From a virus, in the IMG/VR virus record IMGVR_UViG_3300007363_000144, positions 1 to 20,254 of that record: DNA of 20,254 nt; one strand, given 5' to 3'. The number at the start of each line of letters is the position of its first letter. Position 1 is the stretch's first letter. The notes below the pieces were generated by a model. That model was not told where the DNA came from and searched no databases. It saw only the letters and a program-made list of their open reading frames with translations. Positions 2,330 to 20,254 of the stretch are shown piece by piece. The position numbers were made by a program, and so were the translations under genes.

Positions 2330-2536
2330 GTGGATCGCTCAGGGCACGTGGCAAAGGCCGAACAGACGGCGGCACGTTCCGTAGTCGTCGCAGAAACCGT
2401 CGAAGTCGGCCGACAAGTTCTGTATGCGGGAACGCTTGTGCGTCTCGACTTCGCGTTAGCGAATGGCGTGCCTTATCGGGCCATAAAGACCGTCACACTT
2501 GGAGACACTCATGCGGATCGGATATGCGACAGTTGA
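2330..2536 (+). CDS. Small hypothetical protein between capsid and glycosyltransferase
   Basis: The product has 68 residues from the GTG at 2330; a second GTG at 2348 would give 62. The middle reads as a plausible small beta-rich protein (ETVEVGRQVLYAGTLVRLD then YRAIKTVTLGD), like the short uncharacterised proteins that follow capsid genes in many siphoviruses. There is no ribosome site; a TACAGT box 7 bases upstream suggests leaderless translation. Its end overlaps the glycosyltransferase start by 26 bases. I do not recognise a family. It could be a minor head protein, but no function is claimed. Confidence 0.5.
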   Translation: MDRSGHVAKAEQTAARSVVVAETVEVGRQVLYAGTLVRLDFALANGVPYRAIKTVTLGDTHADRICDS

Positions 2537-3647
2537 CTTCTCGCGCACGTATCGACTGCCGAACGGCGCACCGCCACTCGGGGGTGCAGGCCACTACCGA
2601 GTAGGAATCCCAGCCCGAGCGTTAGCCGAACACGGCCACGACGTGACAGTCGGCCTGCTTACATCGCATCGCAAGAGCGGCGAGTTCGGCATCCTGCCGT
2701 TGGATTGCATCGACCTCGACGGCAACGACCGAGATGCCCGCATCGAATGGGGTTTCGACATCATCGTCATGCAGCGATGGATGCATCGCGACGTGTCCGC
2801 TGACATCGGCCGTGCACGTGCGGCGGGGCAAGTGATCGTCAACGACATTGACGACCACTTCGACGCGATCCCGCCCACGAATCAAGCGTTTCATGCGACG
2901 CACCCGGCCAGGAACGCAGACGAGAACGTGGCGCACTATCGGGAGATTCTGCGCCACTCCGATCTCATCACTTGCTCGACGCCGTTTATTGCTCGCTGGT
3001 ACGAACGGTATGCGCCGACGTGCGTGATCCGTAACGCGGTCGACATGCGCGAATGGGAGACGCACCCGCATCGGGAGCCGCCGGTGCTCGGCTGGGTGGG
3101 CGCGACAGCGTTCCGAGGCGGCGACTTGGAAGTCGCCGCGGGTGCCATTGCTGAGACGTTGGCGACCGGGCTGTACGCGCCGCAGTTCCACCATGCGGGC
3201 GATCATTCGTCGCACAAGCCTGCACACTCGTTGCTCGGCTTGCCTGCTGCGTCGGTGACGACGACGCCGATGGCACCCATTCATAAGTACCCGGCGTTGT
3301 TGCAGTCCATCGACGTGGGAATCGTGCCGCTCAATCTCATCTCGTTCAACGAGGCGAAGTCGGCCATCAAGGGCATGGAGTACGCCGCCGCTGGCATCCC
3401 GTTCGCAGCGACCGAGACGCCCGAGTACGCATGGTTGCGAGACACGCACGGTGTGGGCGTAACGGTGCGTCAGAACCGGCAGCGGTCGTGGGTTGGTGCC
3501 CTGCGGCAGCTTGCCGACCCCGAGGTGCGTGCAGCCGAAGCAGCCCGGCAACGCGAGGCCATTGCGGCGCTGGACATCGGGCAGCACTGGCGCGAGTGGG
3601 AGCAGGCCTACCAGTCGCTCCTCCCGGCGGGTGTGGCTGCACGATAG
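2511..3647 (+). CDS. GT-B fold glycosyltransferase (GT4-like)
   Basis: The product has 378 residues. The start is the ATG at 2511 with GGAG at 2501-2504, preferred over a TTG at 2499. The N-terminal Rossmann domain has a Gly-rich GGAGHYR loop (residues 24-30), then HDVTVGLL, DIIVMQRW and VNDIDDHFD (residues 110-118). The linker has CVIRNAVDM (171-179), like the N-G/A-V-D of GT4 enzymes. The second domain has LGWVGA (193-198), HKYPALLQSIDVGIVPL (258-273) and FNEAKSAIKGMEYAAAGIP (279-297), which correspond to the nucleotide-sugar site. It would transfer a sugar from an activated donor. Lying between capsid and connector genes, it may glycosylate the virion, as seen in some mycobacteriophages. 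The acceptor is not known. Confidence 0.85.
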   Translation: MRIGYATVDFSRTYRLPNGAPPLGGAGHYRVGIPARALAEHGHDVTVGLLTSHRKSGEFGILPLDCIDLDGNDRDARIEWGFDIIVMQRWMHRDVSADIGRARAAGQVIVNDIDDHFDAIPPTNQAFHATHPARNADENVAHYREILRHSDLITCSTPFIARWYERYAPTCVIRNAVDMREWETHPHREPPVLGWVGATAFRGGDLEVAAGAIAETLATGLYAPQFHHAGDHSSHKPAHSLLGLPAASVTTTPMAPIHKYPALLQSIDVGIVPLNLISFNEAKSAIKGMEYAAAGIPFAATETPEYAWLRDTHGVGVTVRQNRQRSWVGALRQLADPEVRAAEAARQREAIAALDIGQHWREWEQAYQSLLPAGVAAR

Positions 3648-14434: not shown

Positions 14435-15766
14435 GTGCCGAAGGGCGGGACGTGCACGTTCTGCGCGCTGCCCGATGACGCGAAAGCGGCTGCGCTTGCA
14501 GCGTGGCGTTCCGGCGCTTCGTACGCCAAGATGCGGACGTTGCTACGCGACCTCGGCCACGACATAACGCTTGCAGCATTGCAGCATTGCCCTATCCGTA
14601 GCGGCCATCACGGCACGCGAGACGACGCCATCCCGGCGGGCGTGTCAACCGACCGGCTCGGACGCATCGCCGATCTGTTGGAACGGTCAGGCGTGGACCC
14701 TGCCGATGTCGGCAGGATCACGTCGGTGCGTCTGTCCGAGTGGGAAGGTCTCAGCAAGAACGAGGACGGCGAGGCGGTCGTGACGCCGCTGTCGGGTGCG
14801 AGCATCATCTTGACGCCCGCCTGGGAAGATGGCCCGCAATGGCCGGTCGTTGACCGGGCTGCACAAGTGCCCGTCAAGTTGCCGCTGCCCGCACCGCGCA
14901 AGCGTTCTAAGTGGAAGACCGCGGTGGTCTTGCCCGACGTGCAGATCGGGTTTCGGCGTGACATCGACACGGCGACGTTAGAGCCGTTCCACGATGAGGC
15001 GGCGATGGCTGCCGCCCTCAAGGTTGTGCGTGCCGTGGACCCTGACCTAGTCGTCCACTTGGGTGACTTCTTGGACTTCGCCAACTTCGGAACGTACGAA
15101 CAGGAGCCGGGTTTCGCGCTGTGCGTCCAGCCCGCTATAGATCGCAGCCACCGGTTCTTAGTTGAAGTGCAGGCGGCGGCGCCTCGGGCGAAGCAGGTGC
15201 TCCTCGAAGGGAACCACGACCGGCGATTACAGAAGGCGATCGTACGGAACGCGTTGGCGGCGTTCGGGATCCGGCGGGCCGAAGCACCCGACGAATGGCC
15301 CGTGCTCTCCGTCCCGTACCTCCTGCGTTTGGGTGAGGTCGGCGACGGCGTCGAATATGTGGGCGGCTATCCGGCGGGCATCTACTGGCTGTCTGATCGG
15401 CTGGCGTGCATTCACGGCCATAAGGTCCGGTCAAACGGCAGCACAGCGGCGGCGGTGCTGGACGATGAAACGGTGAGCCTGCTGTTCGGACACGTGCACC
15501 GTATCGAAATGTCGTACCGGACGCGTCGCGTGCGGGCCGGGGCTCGCACGTCGTTGGCGGCGTCGCCGGGCTGTTTGTGCCGCCTGGACGGCGTAGTGCC
15601 GTCAGTGAAAGGCAGCACCGACCCGATGGGCAGACCCGTGCCTGCTGTCGAGAACTGGCAGCATGGTTGTGCCGTCGTCACATACCAAGAAGGCGACGGG
15701 CCGTTCCACCTTGAGTTAGTGCCTATTCATGACGGCGAAGTCATGTTCCGAGGGGAGGCGCTGTGA
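14435..15766 (+). CDS. Calcineurin-like metallophosphoesterase with N-terminal Cys/His-containing region
   Basis: The product has 443 residues from GTG 14435, with AAGG 7 bases upstream. Residues 1-60 carry CTFC and HCPIRSGHH around helices (AAALAAWRSGASYAKMRTLLRDLG), perhaps a small zinc-stabilised or helix-turn-helix region. The catalytic domain follows: VVLPDVQIG (Asp168), LGDFLDF (Asp211), EGNHDRR (Asn260, His261), CIHGHK (His327/329) and FGHVHR (His353, His355). These are the metal-binding motifs of the metallophosphoesterase superfamily. The usual first His is replaced by Gln170. Such phage enzymes may act on DNA, RNA or phosphoesters; the substrate is unclear. It is unusual among tail and lysis genes. 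It ends in a GTGA overlap with the next gene. Confidence 0.85.
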   Translation: MPKGGTCTFCALPDDAKAAALAAWRSGASYAKMRTLLRDLGHDITLAALQHCPIRSGHHGTRDDAIPAGVSTDRLGRIADLLERSGVDPADVGRITSVRLSEWEGLSKNEDGEAVVTPLSGASIILTPAWEDGPQWPVVDRAAQVPVKLPLPAPRKRSKWKTAVVLPDVQIGFRRDIDTATLEPFHDEAAMAAALKVVRAVDPDLVVHLGDFLDFANFGTYEQEPGFALCVQPAIDRSHRFLVEVQAAAPRAKQVLLEGNHDRRLQKAIVRNALAAFGIRRAEAPDEWPVLSVPYLLRLGEVGDGVEYVGGYPAGIYWLSDRLACIHGHKVRSNGSTAAAVLDDETVSLLFGHVHRIEMSYRTRRVRAGARTSLAASPGCLCRLDGVVPSVKGSTDPMGRPVPAVENWQHGCAVVTYQEGDGPFHLELVPIHDGEVMFRGEAL

Positions 15767-16173: not shown

Positions 16174-16355
16174 TGACGGTGAACCTGATGTCGTTGCGGC
16201 TGATCGCGTTGCATGGCTGCACGCTGGTCGAACGTGACGTGGTGCAGATCGGCCCGTTCGGCTACCGGGTCATCGGCTGGGATTACGTGAACCGGGCGCT
16301 CAAGCTGGAGCCTGCGCCCGATTATGACAAGGAACCTGCGCCGCCTTTGGATTGA
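16173..16355 (+). CDS. Small hypothetical protein
   Basis: The product has 60 residues from the ATG at 16173, overlapping the previous stop by one base. It reads MTVNLMSLRLIALHGCTLVE then RDVVQIGPFGYRVIGWDYVNRALKLEPAP, probably a small beta-rich domain, with a Pro-rich end. No family is recognised. Its last 34 bases overlap the end of the convergent minus-strand gene. It is the last gene of the plus-strand run that starts at 14435. Confidence 0.55.
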   Translation: MTVNLMSLRLIALHGCTLVERDVVQIGPFGYRVIGWDYVNRALKLEPAPDYDKEPAPPLD

Positions 16356-16789
16356 TGCCATTGCACGTCGGCGTTGTCGGCGTACACGGCGGGCAGCTGC
16401 GCGAAGCGGGCCTGGAGTGCAGGGTCGCCAACAACGCCGTGAATGATCGGCCAGCGGGCTGTCATGTGCGTCTGCAAGACGGCGGCGACTTGTTGCCAGC
16501 GGGCCGGGTCGGCGGGTGCGAGCGCCCACAGAATGCGGCATACGCCGTCTCTGCTGGAGCGGGCGATGATGAGGCCCTCGACGGCAGGCGGGCGGTAGGG
16601 CGGCTCGTAAGCGACGAGGACGTGCCGGTTGGTGCGGTCGGCTCGCATGTACCCGCGGATGACTTCCTGCGGCGGGTGATCGTTGAACGGCGAGCAAGGC
16701 GCTGACTCTTGCGCGAGGCGACGCGCGGTGACCATGAACGTGGCAGCGTCCCGATGGCTGCCTGTCAGTTCGCGCACTTGGAGAGCCAT
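16322..16789 (-). CDS. GNAT-like protein (possible N-acetyltransferase), only minus-strand gene
   Basis: The product has 155 residues. It has strand-helix order suggestive of a GNAT fold: an N-terminal helix RDAATFMVTARRLAQES, RHVLVAYEPPYRPPAVEGLIIAR as two central strands, CRILWALAPAD, a helix WQQVAAVLQTHMTARW and the strand IIHGVV. No classical acetyl-CoA R/Q-x-x-G-x-G/A loop is obvious, so activity is uncertain. Codon use has high third-position GC on the minus strand. A TATCGT box six bases upstream of the ATG suggests a leaderless promoter of its own. It faces the end of the upstream small genes and diverges from the Gp80-like gene, a typical arrangement for an independently expressed cargo gene. 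It resembles the product of 17251-17709 in layout. Confidence 0.62.
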   Translation of the reverse strand: MALQVRELTGSHRDAATFMVTARRLAQESAPCSPFNDHPPQEVIRGYMRADRTNRHVLVAYEPPYRPPAVEGLIIARSSRDGVCRILWALAPADPARWQQVAAVLQTHMTARWPIIHGVVGDPALQARFAQLPAVYADNADVQWHQSKGGAGSLS

Positions 16790-16854: not shown

Positions 16855-17238
16855 ATGAGCGCGAGCGATTACTTGGAGAACAAGCTGCTGGACTTGGTGT
16901 TCAACGCCACCGCCTACTCGGGTCAGTCCACCGTGTATGTGAAACTGCACAAGGACGCGTCGACCAATGAGACAGGCACGACGAACGCAGCGGCGAACAC
17001 GACGCGTGCGGCGGTGACGTTCGGCGCGTCGTCGTCGGGCACGGTCACGTCCGACTCGGATGCGACGTGGACGAACGTGAGCACGACTGAGGTGTACTAC
17101 GCGATCAGCCTGTGGGACGCGCAGACGAACGGCACGGGCAACTGCCTGTGGACGGGTGACCTCACGCAGAGCAAGTCGGTCACTGCGGGCGACACGTTCA
17201 CCATCCCGAGCGGCTCATTGACCGTAAGCCTCGACTAG
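16855..17238 (+). CDS. Gp80-like small phage tail fibre/decoration protein
   Basis: The product has 127 residues behind a GAAAGG site. It begins SASDYLENKLLDLVFNATAYSGQSTVYVKLHKD, continues with NTTRAAVTFGASSSGTVTSDSDATWTNVSTTEVYYAISLWDAQTNG, and ends LWTGDLTQSKSVTAGDTFTIPSGSLTVSLD. This succession (DYxENKLLDxxF, xVYVxLH, TRAAVTF, GNxLWxGxL, GDTFxIPSGxLxVxLD) is the hallmark of a widespread small all-beta actinophage family, annotated as tail fibre or Gp80-like, in which the final xLD is nearly always present. It is probably a virion surface component. A position after the lysis genes and before a large repeat protein suggests it belongs to the distal tail. Confidence 0.75.
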   Translation: MSASDYLENKLLDLVFNATAYSGQSTVYVKLHKDASTNETGTTNAAANTTRAAVTFGASSSGTVTSDSDATWTNVSTTEVYYAISLWDAQTNGTGNCLWTGDLTQSKSVTAGDTFTIPSGSLTVSLD

Positions 17239-17250
17239 CGACGGTGCGCT

Positions 17251-17709
17251 GTGCCGCAGCAGTACGTCGTCACGACCGCGACCGCTGCCGACGTTGACGC
17301 GCTTATCGCTGATTACGAGACGTTCATTGCCACTGAGCAGGTGATCGCCTGCGTAATGGACGGCCAACTGCGCCTGCCGTCTCCGGCGAAAGTCCGCTAT
17401 TACGTCGACGACCCTGACGGCTACGGCCACTTCGCAATCGTCGCACGGGACACGAGCGGGCTTCTAGCGTCGGTGGCTCTCTGCCAACCGCAGGGCAACG
17501 ACGCGGTCCACTTGTCGTATTGGGTGCTGATCGACTCTGCCGCAGACTTCAACGCCATCGCTTTGGCTGGCGCTGAACATTTAGCAAGCCTCGGTTTCGG
17601 TGCGCTCTCGGGTGTTGCGGGTGGCGAGATGGCGCAACGCGTGGAACGCGTGCCGATCGTTGAACAACTCGGTCCAGACGTTCTCGGCGCAGACCTGTTG
17701 GGGCTATGA
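17251..17709 (+). CDS. Second GNAT-like hypothetical protein
   Basis: The product has 152 residues from GTG 17251, 12 bases after the Gp80-like stop with no ribosome site. It shows TAADVDALIADYETFIATEQ (helix), a KVRYYVDDPDGYGHFAIVAR strand, LLASVALCQ, VHLSYWVLID, a helix FNAIALAGAEHLASLG and FGALSGVAGG. This is the strand-helix order of a GNAT fold. It parallels the minus-strand protein of 16322-16789: VIRGYM...RHVLVAYE against VRYYV...GHFAIVAR, and similar helices and strands after it. Function is not known; it may modify a fibre or host surface molecule. The stop overlaps the next ATG as ATGA, so it is made together with the large repeat protein. Confidence 0.65.
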   Translation: MPQQYVVTTATAADVDALIADYETFIATEQVIACVMDGQLRLPSPAKVRYYVDDPDGYGHFAIVARDTSGLLASVALCQPQGNDAVHLSYWVLIDSAADFNAIALAGAEHLASLGFGALSGVAGGEMAQRVERVPIVEQLGPDVLGADLLGL

Positions 17710-20254
17710 CAACCGAGACTCCGCAACTCAATGAAGTTGATCTCGGCCTTGCCGAGGTTGACGTTGACGGCAACGGCGTCACCTACGCGAAAGTCACGTC
17801 GCCGTCGTACGGCGGCGGCAGCCTAACGTGGGTCAGCGGAGGTTCCGCAGGTGCGGTGAGCGGCCTGGCGCACGTCAAGACCTCCTCTGGGTCTGTTCTT
17901 TCCAAGAACAACGAAGTGCATGTCGTGATGTCGGCGCCGACCGGCACCAACGCGCGGGGTGGCCCGATCCTTCGTGGCGCGAATCCGACCGGCACGAAGT
18001 GGTCTGGCTACTACGTTCGCGAAACAACCGCCGGGAATGCGACATCGTGGGAGATCGTCCGGTGGGACGGCACCAGCGTGACTGCGACGCTAGCGACGCT
18101 CAGTCCAGCCGGAGTGACCGGCTACCCGGTTGCAATCAAGTTCGCAGCGATTGGCGACCTGCTCATGCTCAAGGTGTGGGCGTCTGGCGCATCCGAGCCG
18201 GATTGGGGAAGCACGACGAACGTCGTGACCGTCACCGACACGACGTACACCGGCGCCGAGGCGGGCATGGCCGCATGGGGCTTGACCGCCTCAGGCAACA
18301 AAGTTGAGTGGTCGAGCCTCAAGCTGCGCCCGACTTCGCAGATCGCGTTCACGAACGTCGCGAGCGTCGCTGACACGGCGTCTAATACGAACAGTTACAG
18401 CCTGTCAAATGTCGAGTTCGTCAAGAACACGCCGCACATCATCTTCGTCTACAACCAGGCGGGCGCAACGGCGAACGCTCCGACCGTCACCGTGCCATCC
18501 GGCGTGACGTTGTCATCAGCCAAGACAAGTTCAGCGTTCTCCGGCACGAACCTGCGGCGCTATGCGCTCTACACGGCGCAAGCCGACGGCACCACACGCA
18601 CGGGAACAGTCACGGCGTCGTTCAGCACGCAGAATCAGACCGGTTGCAGCATCGCCGTGATCCGCGTCTGGAATGGTGACCCGTCCTCATCGAACGGCAG
18701 CGCGATTCTCGGCACGGGCAGCGCCTACGACGTAGACGACCCGAACACTACGGGTACGAGCATTTCTTCTTCGTTGACGTTCGTGAACCCGGTCGGCACT
18801 TCCGGCACGTTCTTCGTCGCTGCGACCGCCGTCAACGCGATCATTTCGCTTCAGAACGGCACCAGCATCGCGAGCGGCAACTACGCGAACCCGGCAACGG
18901 CATATAACTTCGGAGTCTCGGTCGGGAATGCGACAGCGCCGAGCGGATCGTGGACCGGCACAACGCCTGACCGGATCAGCATCGGCGGCGAGGTCGCTCT
19001 TTCCGACTGGTACAAGTCGGAGTGGCAATCCAAGACGGGCGCGGCGACCTTGTCGGCAACCGGCTCGCAAACAGCCGCGGGCGTTCGCAAGCGTCTCGGT
19101 GCAGCCGCCTTGACGGCAACTGGTTCGCAGACAGCGGCGGGCACGGTCACGACAGGCAGTCAGACCGTCACCGGCGCCGCTGCGCTAACTGCCGCCGGAT
19201 CGCAGACGGCAGCGGGCACGGTCACGCGTCTCGGTGCGGCTGCCTTGACGGCGGCAGGTACGCAGACAGCGGCAGGCGTCAGAACGACTGCGGGTGCGGC
19301 AGCACTAACGGCTACCGGCACGGCAGCTGCGGCAGGCGTGTGCACAAGGCAGGCTGCGGCCACCCTGTCGGCGACCGGTGCGTCAACCGTCGTTGGTGTG
19401 CGGACTTGTTTCGGTGCGGCGTCGCTCGCCGGTGCAGCGACACTGACCGGCGCAGGCGCGCGCACCGGCATCGGTGCGGCAGCCCTGGCGGGCACAGGAA
19501 CGCAAACCGCGACGGGGGTACGGACTTGTTTCGGTGCGGCCAGCCTGTCGGCAGCCGGGACGTTGTCGGCCTCGGGCACGGTCACAACAGGCGCACAGAC
19601 AGTCACGGGTGCAGCAGTCCTAACGGCCGTAAGCACGCAGACTGTTGCTGGTGTCCGAACGCGTTTCGCTGCGGCCGCGTTGTCAGCGACGAGTGCGGCG
19701 ACAGCAGCGGGCACGCGAACGATCACGGGTGCAGCGACGCTGTCGGCTGCGGGTTCGTTGTCGGCTACTGGCGGGCGTTTGTTTGTGGGTGCTGCGACGC
19801 TTGTATCTGCCGGGTCGCTATCGGCGGCGGGCGTTCGCGCCCGACTTGGTGGTGCTGCGCTGTCGTCTTCGACAGGATTGCAGGCGGCTGGGACACGCAG
19901 CGCGCTCGGTGCGGCGGCGTTGTCAGGCCAGGCTGCTCTGTCGGCGGTAGCGGTTCGTATTGCGTTCGCTGTCGGCTCCCTACAAGCGGCAGGGGTCCTC
20001 GACGCTACAGGTGTTCGCACGCGTCTGACGGCGGCGGCGTTGTTGGCTGTTGGGTCGTTGACCGCACAGGGGCGTGGCTACCCGCCGGAGGTAACGCGGC
20101 AGCGTGGTCCGTTGACGGCTACGTCAACAGGCCAGCGGGCGCGGACGGTGACGGTTGGTGCAGGTGGGTCGTCGGCACGAACGATCGGCGTGCGCTCGCC
20201 GGTCGTTAGCGTGGACGCTGACCGGGATGCAGTATCGGTTCCGTCGTCGCCGTC
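17706..20254 (+). CDS. Large repeat-containing minor tail/adhesin-like protein, C-terminally open
   Basis: The frame opens at ATG 17706 (ATGA overlap) and has no stop to the window end, giving 849 visible residues. Residues about 15-205 look like a concanavalin/LamG-type beta sandwich (LTWVSGGSAGAVSGLAHVKT, WSGYYVRETTAGNATSWEIVRWDG, IKFAAIGDLLMLKVWASG, WSSLKLRP). Residues about 207-440 form a second beta-rich domain (HIIFVYNQAG, GCSIAVIRVWNGD, TFFVAATAVNAIISLQNGT, DRISIGGEVALSDWYKSEW), a pattern common in phage surface proteins. Residues 445-774 are sixteen Ala/Gly/Thr-rich repeats. A basic, Thr/Val-rich segment follows. No catalytic motif is seen. It is probably a long tail fibre or minor tail protein that binds the host surface, with the repeats as stalk. 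The gene may be very long. Confidence 0.75.
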   Translation, partial: MTTETPQLNEVDLGLAEVDVDGNGVTYAKVTSPSYGGGSLTWVSGGSAGAVSGLAHVKTSSGSVLSKNNEVHVVMSAPTGTNARGGPILRGANPTGTKWSGYYVRETTAGNATSWEIVRWDGTSVTATLATLSPAGVTGYPVAIKFAAIGDLLMLKVWASGASEPDWGSTTNVVTVTDTTYTGAEAGMAAWGLTASGNKVEWSSLKLRPTSQIAFTNVASVADTASNTNSYSLSNVEFVKNTPHIIFVYNQAGATANAPTVTVPSGVTLSSAKTSSAFSGTNLRRYALYTAQADGTTRTGTVTASFSTQNQTGCSIAVIRVWNGDPSSSNGSAILGTGSAYDVDDPNTTGTSISSSLTFVNPVGTSGTFFVAATAVNAIISLQNGTSIASGNYANPATAYNFGVSVGNATAPSGSWTGTTPDRISIGGEVALSDWYKSEWQSKTGAATLSATGSQTAAGVRKRLGAAALTATGSQTAAGTVTTGSQTVTGAAALTAAGSQTAAGTVTRLGAAALTAAGTQTAAGVRTTAGAAALTATGTAAAAGVCTRQAAATLSATGASTVVGVRTCFGAASLAGAATLTGAGARTGIGAAALAGTGTQTATGVRTCFGAASLSAAGTLSASGTVTTGAQTVTGAAVLTAVSTQTVAGVRTRFAAAALSATSAATAAGTRTITGAATLSAAGSLSATGGRLFVGAATLVSAGSLSAAGVRARLGGAALSSSTGLQAAGTRSALGAAALSGQAALSAVAVRIAFAVGSLQAAGVLDATGVRTRLTAAALLAVGSLTAQGRGYPPEVTRQRGPLTATSTGQRARTVTVGAGGSSARTIGVRSPVVSVDADRDAVSVPSSP
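19038..20027 (+). repeat. Sixteen degenerate 60/75-base tandem repeats coding 20/25-residue units
   Basis: Units follow GAA(A/T/S)L(T/S)A(T/A)G(S/T)-(Q/L)(T/S)AAG(V/T)RTRL. Fourteen units have 20 residues. Units 2 (19098-19172) and 9 (19533-19607) have 25, with an added TTG(S/A)QTVT end. The lengths sum exactly to 330 residues. A partial seventeenth unit, TAAALLAVGSLTAQG, follows. Exact DNA matches are short, for example a 20-base match at 19401-19420 and 19521-19540, so the repeats are old and diverged mostly at third positions. Each unit could be one rung of a beta-solenoid or a pair of strands. Confidence 0.88.

What the first reader, a model, noticed from the sequence alone, without database searches (positions are those of the whole stretch)
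17706..20254. Very long open frame with two beta-sandwich-like domains and a 16-unit repeat stalk, unterminated in the window
The frame stays open for 849 codons with a clean domain order: lectin-like sandwich, second sandwich, repeat stalk, basic Thr/Val-rich segment. It is coupled to the gene before it. Methods that need a stop codon miss it and report shadow frames instead. Its placement after a Gp80-like protein suggests a host-contacting fibre whose reach is set by repeat number.
Basis: partly seen in the sequence, partly recalled or inferred. Interest (0 to 1): 0.75.

Follow-up and report, generated by a model that had tools for sequence, protein, structure and literature searches.

The report
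Phage adhesin-plus-rope fibre protein (probable)
A phage gene cut off by the end of its contig is in fact complete (855 residues) and most likely makes a fibre in which an adhesive head is fused to a 17-fold, 20-residue-repeat 'rope' for the bead protein (Gp80) encoded just upstream, a gene pairing that recurs in many unrelated phages but had not been explained.

Summary
The reading frame is real. A near-identical contig carries it on to a stop six codons past the window: 855 aa, complete. The C-terminal half is 17 units of 20 residues (two with 5-residue inserts). Synonymous sites are randomised while the protein pattern is kept, so it is under selection. The two 'sandwich' domains have no relatives in any library searched and an uninformative fold prediction; lectin-like is unproven.

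The main result is the neighbourhood. The upstream Gp80-like protein (PF23140) belongs to the bead family of podophage GP4 fibre I, where (literature recalled, paper not held) gp80 dimers are strung on a 'rope'. Twenty-residue-repeat proteins sit beside Gp80-like genes in GP4-type podophages, mycobacteriophages, Bacillota, Alishewanella and marine phages. A reciprocal search from one such protein found Gp80 upstream in 24 of 25 long contigs (mostly one lineage). Best reading: the 'stalk' is the rope, fused to adhesin domains; repeat number would set bead number.

Rope-bead contact is inferred. GP4's adaptor homologue was not found here, and in JC1 virions the rope was not detected although bead and adaptor were. 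A 2026 paper reports the same kind of module and leaves this region unexplained.

The parts
16855..17238 (+). Gp80-like protein, 127 aa; proposed bead of the fibre
   Evidence: Pfam PF23140 E 2.8e-26, phrog_240 E 4.5e-25, PDB 8jou_a E 8.3e-7
17251..17709 (+). 152-aa protein of unknown function, GTG start, stop overlaps the next start (ATGA)
   Evidence: no family match
17706..20254 (+). First 849 codons of the 855-aa adhesin-rope protein; the stop lies six codons beyond the window
17706..18344 (+).
   Evidence: no relative; AF2 pLDDT 38
18345..19031 (+). Domain 2 (residues 214-442), unassigned, beta-rich in a low-confidence model
   Evidence: no relative
19035..20084 (+). Rope: 17 tandem 20-residue units (consensus about LGAAALTATGTQTAAGVRTR), 5-residue inserts after units 2 and 9
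20085..20254 (+). Basic Thr/Val-rich C-terminal tail with short repeated motifs (ARTVTV, ARTIGV), possible anchor
   Evidence: sequence inspection; inference

Best explanation
The gene encodes a complete 855-aa virion fibre protein. Its N-terminal ~440 residues are a payload, probably for binding the host surface. Its C-terminal half is a 20-residue-repeat 'rope' on which copies of the Gp80-like protein encoded just upstream are strung like beads, as gp80 dimers are on the rope of podophage GP4 fibre I. A short basic C-terminal tail, and/or the small protein encoded next, would fix the fibre to the neck or head-tail region. The number of units would set the number of beads and so the length. 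Shown: complete frame, period, selection on the protein pattern, Gp80 family membership, recurring adjacency of 20-residue-repeat genes and Gp80-like genes. Inferred: physical binding of Gp80 to the repeat, adhesion by domains 1 and 2, attachment site, units-per-bead ratio.
For: Complete ORF in a second contig. Period 20 far above chance. Synonymous saturation with the protein pattern kept. Gp80 identity. 20-residue-repeat genes beside Gp80-like genes in IMG/VR loci L005, L011, L019, L023, L074 and L172-L175 and in BcepIL02, BcepMigl, PBC5, POI1126, Itty13, PVJ1, ct2t2046, ctjtQ328, C72C1, Bernardo, DuncansLeg. Genes at +-1 of Gp80: 9/40 with period 20/21 against 6/189 elsewhere, Fisher p 1.5e-4; other periods 1/40 against 14/189. 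Reciprocal search: Gp80 upstream in 24/25 loci with 6.3 kb or more of upstream sequence. Window unit aligns in register with Gp80-adjacent repeats of L172 (prob 86, E 5e-6), L019 and ct2t2046, above column-permuted controls. Same kinds of three genes in Slicko01 and, by published account, in LSH1, where all three proteins were found in virions (PMC13243795).
Against: No direct evidence of Gp80-repeat binding in any phage. The GP4-type adaptor homologue is absent from the window and its continuation by profile search. In JC1 virions the Gp80-like gp53 and adaptor gp55 were detected but the repeat protein gp54 was not listed (PMC9144972); in phiM5 the Gp80-like protein is marked as detected in particles but its neighbour is not. 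Some Gp80 loci show no clear repeat gene (Mvi-JY20, Atu_ph08). Most of the 25 reciprocal loci are one lineage. GP4's rope sequence could not be examined. Period 20 also occurs in unrelated proteins such as portal C-termini.
Confidence: 0.55

Rival explanations
1. One reading: a classical trimeric side or tail fibre whose repeats fold by themselves into a rigid beta-solenoid or beta-prism stalk carrying lectin-like domains; Gp80 is merely a neighbour.
For: Regular strand pairs per 20 residues in the low-confidence AF2 model; long repeat shafts are common in phage fibres (general knowledge).
Against: Model pLDDT 57, pTM 0.46, best Foldseek E 3.3. LSH1's authors obtained a similarly poor beta helix for the corresponding region and no oligomer. 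It does not explain why such repeats keep occurring beside Gp80-like genes.
Confidence: 0.2
2. The repeats are a flexible low-complexity spacer with no specific partner, kept only for composition and length.
For: Ala/Gly/Thr-rich composition; profile scores against reversed sequences show that composition and periodicity explain part of the similarity.
Against: A 20-residue register is held over 17 units with nearly invariant A4, L6 and G16 despite synonymous saturation, and the same period is held in phages of very different base composition.
Confidence: 0.13
3. Modular payload model: Gp80 forms the fibril on its own and the repeat protein only caps its end as an adhesin, the repeats being a connector.
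For: Working model proposed for LSH1 gp34-36 in PMC13243795; Anabaena A-1(L) has a bead-chain neck fibre made of repeated globular subunits without a rope.
Against: It gives no role to a long periodic chain; my recollection of the GP4 paper is of a rope linking gp80 dimers; in podophages the repeat protein has no large payload.
Confidence: 0.1

Closest known systems
Podophage GP4 fibre I (gp80 dimers on a rope; PDB 8JOU, PF23140) and the matching gene order in Bcep22-like phages (gp80, 20-residue-repeat gene phrog_19041, 92-93 aa adaptor)
   Same: Gp80-like bead gene; 20-residue-repeat gene in the same operon; small protein gene next
   Different: Here the repeat is fused behind two large N-terminal domains, has 17 units, a 152-aa gene lies between bead and rope, and the next small protein has no detectable similarity to the GP4 adaptor
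LSH1 gp34-gp35-gp36 module and Slicko01 WGH49683 (PMC13243795)
   Same: Payload domain fused to a 20-residue-repeat region (Slicko01), a Gp80-like protein and a small beta protein
   Different: Payload is a lyase-like beta helix, gene order differs, repeat units not similar in sequence to those here
Mycobacteriophage minor tail protein phrog_416 (Bernardo gp33) beside its Gp80-like gp34
   Same: 20-residue repeats fused to a likely adhesive domain (PF21722 Gly-rich), adjacent to Gp80
   Different: Repeats are N-terminal and the domain C-terminal; gene lies upstream of Gp80
Neck fibre of Anabaena phage A-1(L) (gp82-gp81-gp80)
   Same: Extended bead-chain fibre of repeated subunits at the neck with a distal binding module
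   Different: Beads are trimers that self-assemble without a rope; its gp80 is a different protein despite the number

Membership tests
GP4-type fibre I | Gp80-family bead protein | tested here: met
   PF23140 E 2.8e-26; 8jou_a E 8.3e-7
GP4-type fibre I | 20-residue-repeat protein encoded beside Gp80 | tested here: met
   17 units, two genes downstream; same arrangement in relatives
GP4-type fibre I | Homologue of the 93-aa fibre-tail adaptor (8jou_D) | tested here: not met
   Profile of six adaptors finds none in the window or its continuation; the 115-aa next gene is not detectably related
GP4-type fibre I | Gp80 dimers bound along the rope in the virion | not testable with these tools
   needs co-expression or cryo-EM
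Concanavalin-like lectin domains (residues 1-442) | Family profile match or confident sandwich fold | tested here: not met
   No profile match, no PDB sequence match; fold model unusable, pLDDT 38
Self-folding beta-solenoid fibre shaft | Confident solenoid fold of the repeats | tested here: inconclusive
   Monomer pLDDT 57, pTM 0.46; best Foldseek E 3.3; trimer prediction not available here

The most novel reading that the evidence does not exclude
A widespread, unrecognised class of phage appendage: a single-chain 20-residue-repeat rope that threads Gp80-family beads, found in podo-, sipho- and myoviruses of many hosts, with interchangeable payloads fused at either end or encoded alongside. 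Bead number and fibre reach are set by repeat count, a molecular ruler analogous to the tail tape measure. The window protein is a long adhesin-fused version.
Probability: 0.45. Interest if true: 0.8.

Novelty: new variant of a known kind. Interest (0 to 1): 0.62.

Why it matters
Gp80-like proteins are annotated as head, tail or hypothetical proteins in hundreds of phages (556 records, mostly mycobacteriophages), and their repeat partners as almost anything (serine-rich adhesin, HERC6 ligase, portal protein, hypothetical). A 2026 paper states that it does not know why the adhesin of this module always comes with a region that cannot be predicted. If that region is a rope for Gp80 beads, one repeat-count rule explains it, gives a way to annotate a whole class of appendages, and makes bead number per fibre directly testable, including in Mycobacterium smegmatis phages.

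Tried and rejected
tblastn of the protein and its parts against 50,697 phage records found nothing; BLAST masks low-complexity sequence, so the blank for the repeat is uninformative. Pattern scans of viral and bacterial contigs with domains 1 and 2 found only the same virus. Pfam, PHROGs, NCBIfam and PDB gave nothing significant for domains 1 and 2. Single-sequence AF2 of residues 1-442 was uninformative, so I did not fold-search it. hhalign of domains 1 and 2 against sandwich-like proteins in L005, L011, L019, L023, L074 found nothing. Homology of the next small gene to the GP4 adaptor, to L019's next gene and to Slicko01's was not detected. My six-frame ORF picker chose shadow frames in GC-rich loci and diluted the first positional test (8/114 near against 13/271 other), so I repeated it on annotated genes. 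Bernardo gp42's period 20 was set aside as a different type of repeat. Portal C-termini in several Gp80 loci also score at period 20-21, so period alone is not proof.

Full report
The window is the whole of a 20,254-base virus contig from a phage of siphovirus type: major capsid protein, tail completion, major tail, tape measure, Dit, Gp37-like hub, collar protein, an endolysin with a peptidoglycan-binding domain, metallophosphoesterase, then the cluster at issue. Its capsid protein is closest to Gordonia and Brevibacterium phages, about 40-48% identity, so an actinobacterial host is likely but not shown.

Observation. The frame 17706-20254 is open for 849 codons and begins at an ATG that overlaps the stop of the preceding 152-aa gene (ATGA). 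A pattern scan found a second contig, IMGVR_UViG_3300025635_001387, whose end overlaps the window by 5.5 kb with one substitution and one 6-base indel. The gene is identical there over all 2,549 bases and stops six codons later. The protein is therefore complete at 855 aa, and 'unterminated' is a property of the contig. A 115-aa gene follows (L002:5538-5885), and then a block whose long frames lie on the opposite strand.

The repeat. Autocorrelation gives exactly 20 residues. Seventeen units can be listed; columns 4, 6 and 16 are nearly invariant (A, L, G), and two units are followed by a 5-residue insert. DNA identity between units averages 54%, and identical residues use the same codon hardly more often than codon bias predicts (0.349 against 0.317). 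This is an old repeat held at the protein level, not recent slippage, and it is strong evidence that this frame and not a shadow frame is coding.

The neighbour. The 127-aa protein upstream is a Gp80 (PF23140) and matches PDB 8jou_a, gp80 of Ralstonia podophage GP4, present in 10 chains. From my knowledge of Zheng et al. 2023 (doi 10.1016/j.jmb.2023.168258, not held), GP4 fibre I consists of five gp80 dimers linked by an elongated rope protein. The entry's 10 gp80 chains and 3 adaptor chains fit that description under fivefold symmetry. No PDB chain corresponding to the rope was found by sequence; chains made only of unknown residues are not in that library.

What sits beside Gp80 elsewhere. 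Among 80 IMG/VR loci with a Gp80-like gene, several GC-rich ones carry a 20-residue-repeat gene one to four genes downstream (L005, L011, L019, L023, L074), and two bacterial-genome loci carry repeat genes of period 20-21 directly after Gp80 (L084 Streptomyces, L085). In GP4-type podophages the gene directly after gp80 has period 20: BcepIL02 gp56, BcepMigl gp28, PBC5 gp13, POI1126 gp16, Itty13. The GP4 adaptor homologue follows it, in BcepMigl after one further gene. BcepIL02 gp56 is phrog_19041 ('virion structural protein'), and the repeat of L019, a GC-rich contig of another kind, matches that family at E 9.6e-8. Mycobacteriophages Bernardo and DuncansLeg have a minor tail protein with 20-residue repeats directly upstream of Gp80; Bernardo's is fused to a PF21722 domain. 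In PVJ1 and Lietuvens the neighbouring protein (annotated DUF2313 in Lietuvens) begins with such repeats.

Tests of association. In 20 annotated genomes, genes immediately beside Gp80 have a significant 20/21-residue period in 9 of 40 cases, other genes in 6 of 189 (Fisher p 1.5e-4); other periods show no such excess (1/40 against 14/189). Related genomes are among the 20, so the p-value is optimistic. Reciprocally, a search from Venkman gp51, a repeat protein, returned 79 loci. Of the 25 with enough upstream sequence, 24 have a Gp80-like gene upstream on the same strand (exception L118), and in seven other, more divergent hits (L156-158, L172-175; L172 is also one of the 25) it is within about 115 nt. 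Most of the 25 are one lineage, so the effective number is small. Profile comparison aligns the window's unit in register with L172's (prob 86, E 5e-6), L019's (54) and ct2t2046's (49); permuted-column controls never exceed 17. BcepIL02 is only slightly above its controls and Slicko01 is not similar. I chose the registers by eye.

An independent puzzle. The 2026 description of Alishewanella phage LSH1 (PMC13243795) reports a three-protein virion module: gp34 (lyase-like domain plus a C-terminal region with unusable predictions), gp35 (dimer, HHpred match to 8JOU_g) and gp36 (Ig-like). The authors write that they do not know why the unpredictable region accompanies the domain. Slicko01, a phage they cite as having homologous domains, carries a 1,843-aa protein whose C-terminal part has a 20/40-residue repeat (z 26), followed by a 107-aa small protein and a Gp80-like gene (E 5e-6). 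That this is the protein they refer to is my inference from its size and position. The window has the same three kinds of gene in a different order.

Mechanism. I therefore read the stalk as the rope: an extended chain with one binding site per unit (or per two units) for Gp80, carrying N-terminal payload domains. The short-motif tail after the repeats (ARTVTV...ARTIGV here; RVMRV...RRLQV...RRMRV in PBC5; ETWT...STTWT in L172) may be the anchor; that is inference from inspection. How many units serve one Gp80 dimer cannot be told: by eye PBC5 has about 5 units, BcepIL02 about 11, the window 17.

Weak points. No binding data exist for any such pair. The GP4-type adaptor has no detectable homologue here, so this is not filed as a member of GP4-type fibre I; the claim is that it works like one. 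In JC1 virions bead and adaptor were detected but the repeat gene product gp54 was not listed (PMC9144972); low copy number could explain this but that is not shown. Domains 1 and 2 remain unassigned: AF2 without relatives gave pLDDT 38. The stalk model (pLDDT 57) looks like stacked strands but has no PDB match and resembles the poor beta helix described for LSH1.

Verdict. The better-supported account is an adhesin-rope fusion working with Gp80 beads. It is a new variant of a known but barely described appendage, and the recurring Gp80-repeat pairing is the part a specialist would want to test.

Noticed in passing
L088-L095, L178-L182 (annotated phages): Repeat proteins and Gp80-like proteins carry unrelated labels: 'serine-rich adhesin' (ct2t2046), 'putative E3 ubiquitin-protein ligase HERC6' (Venkman gp51), 'putative portal protein' (PVJ1), 'major capsid protein' and 'tail tube B' for Gp80-like genes.
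   Followed up: partly
L183:4539-4835: Mycobacteriophage Aegeus encodes a clear homologue of the GP4 15-mer adaptor two genes before its Gp80-like gene, so GP4-type neck appendages may exist in mycobacteriophages.
   Followed up: partly
L089:7902-8192: PBC5 has an unannotated adaptor homologue (E 2.4e-31) directly after its repeat gene.
   Followed up: yes
L074:7312-8400 and L019:7312-9321: Genes between Gp80 and the repeat gene look like enzymes by inspection (glycoside-hydrolase-like, pectate-lyase-like), suggesting swappable depolymerase payloads.
   Followed up: no
L060:2591-4282, L005:1881-3644: Portal-like proteins upstream of Gp80 in these contigs carry C-terminal repeats such as VNVAAPNVTVE.
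   Followed up: no
window 15852 region: The two near-identical contigs differ by a 6-base indel in a CGA microsatellite, the only gap in 5.5 kb.
   Followed up: yes
window 19095-19169 and 19530-19604: The two repeat units with a 5-residue insert (GSQTV, GAQTV) are exactly seven units apart; whether they mark a hinge or a larger period is unknown.
   Followed up: no
window 2499-3647 and 14435-15766: A glycosyltransferase (phrog_7162) and a metallophosphoesterase (phrog_20266) are embedded among the structural genes.
   Followed up: no
window 16322-16789 (-): A 155-aa frame on the minus strand in the gap before Gp80, with no family match; coding status unknown.
   Followed up: no
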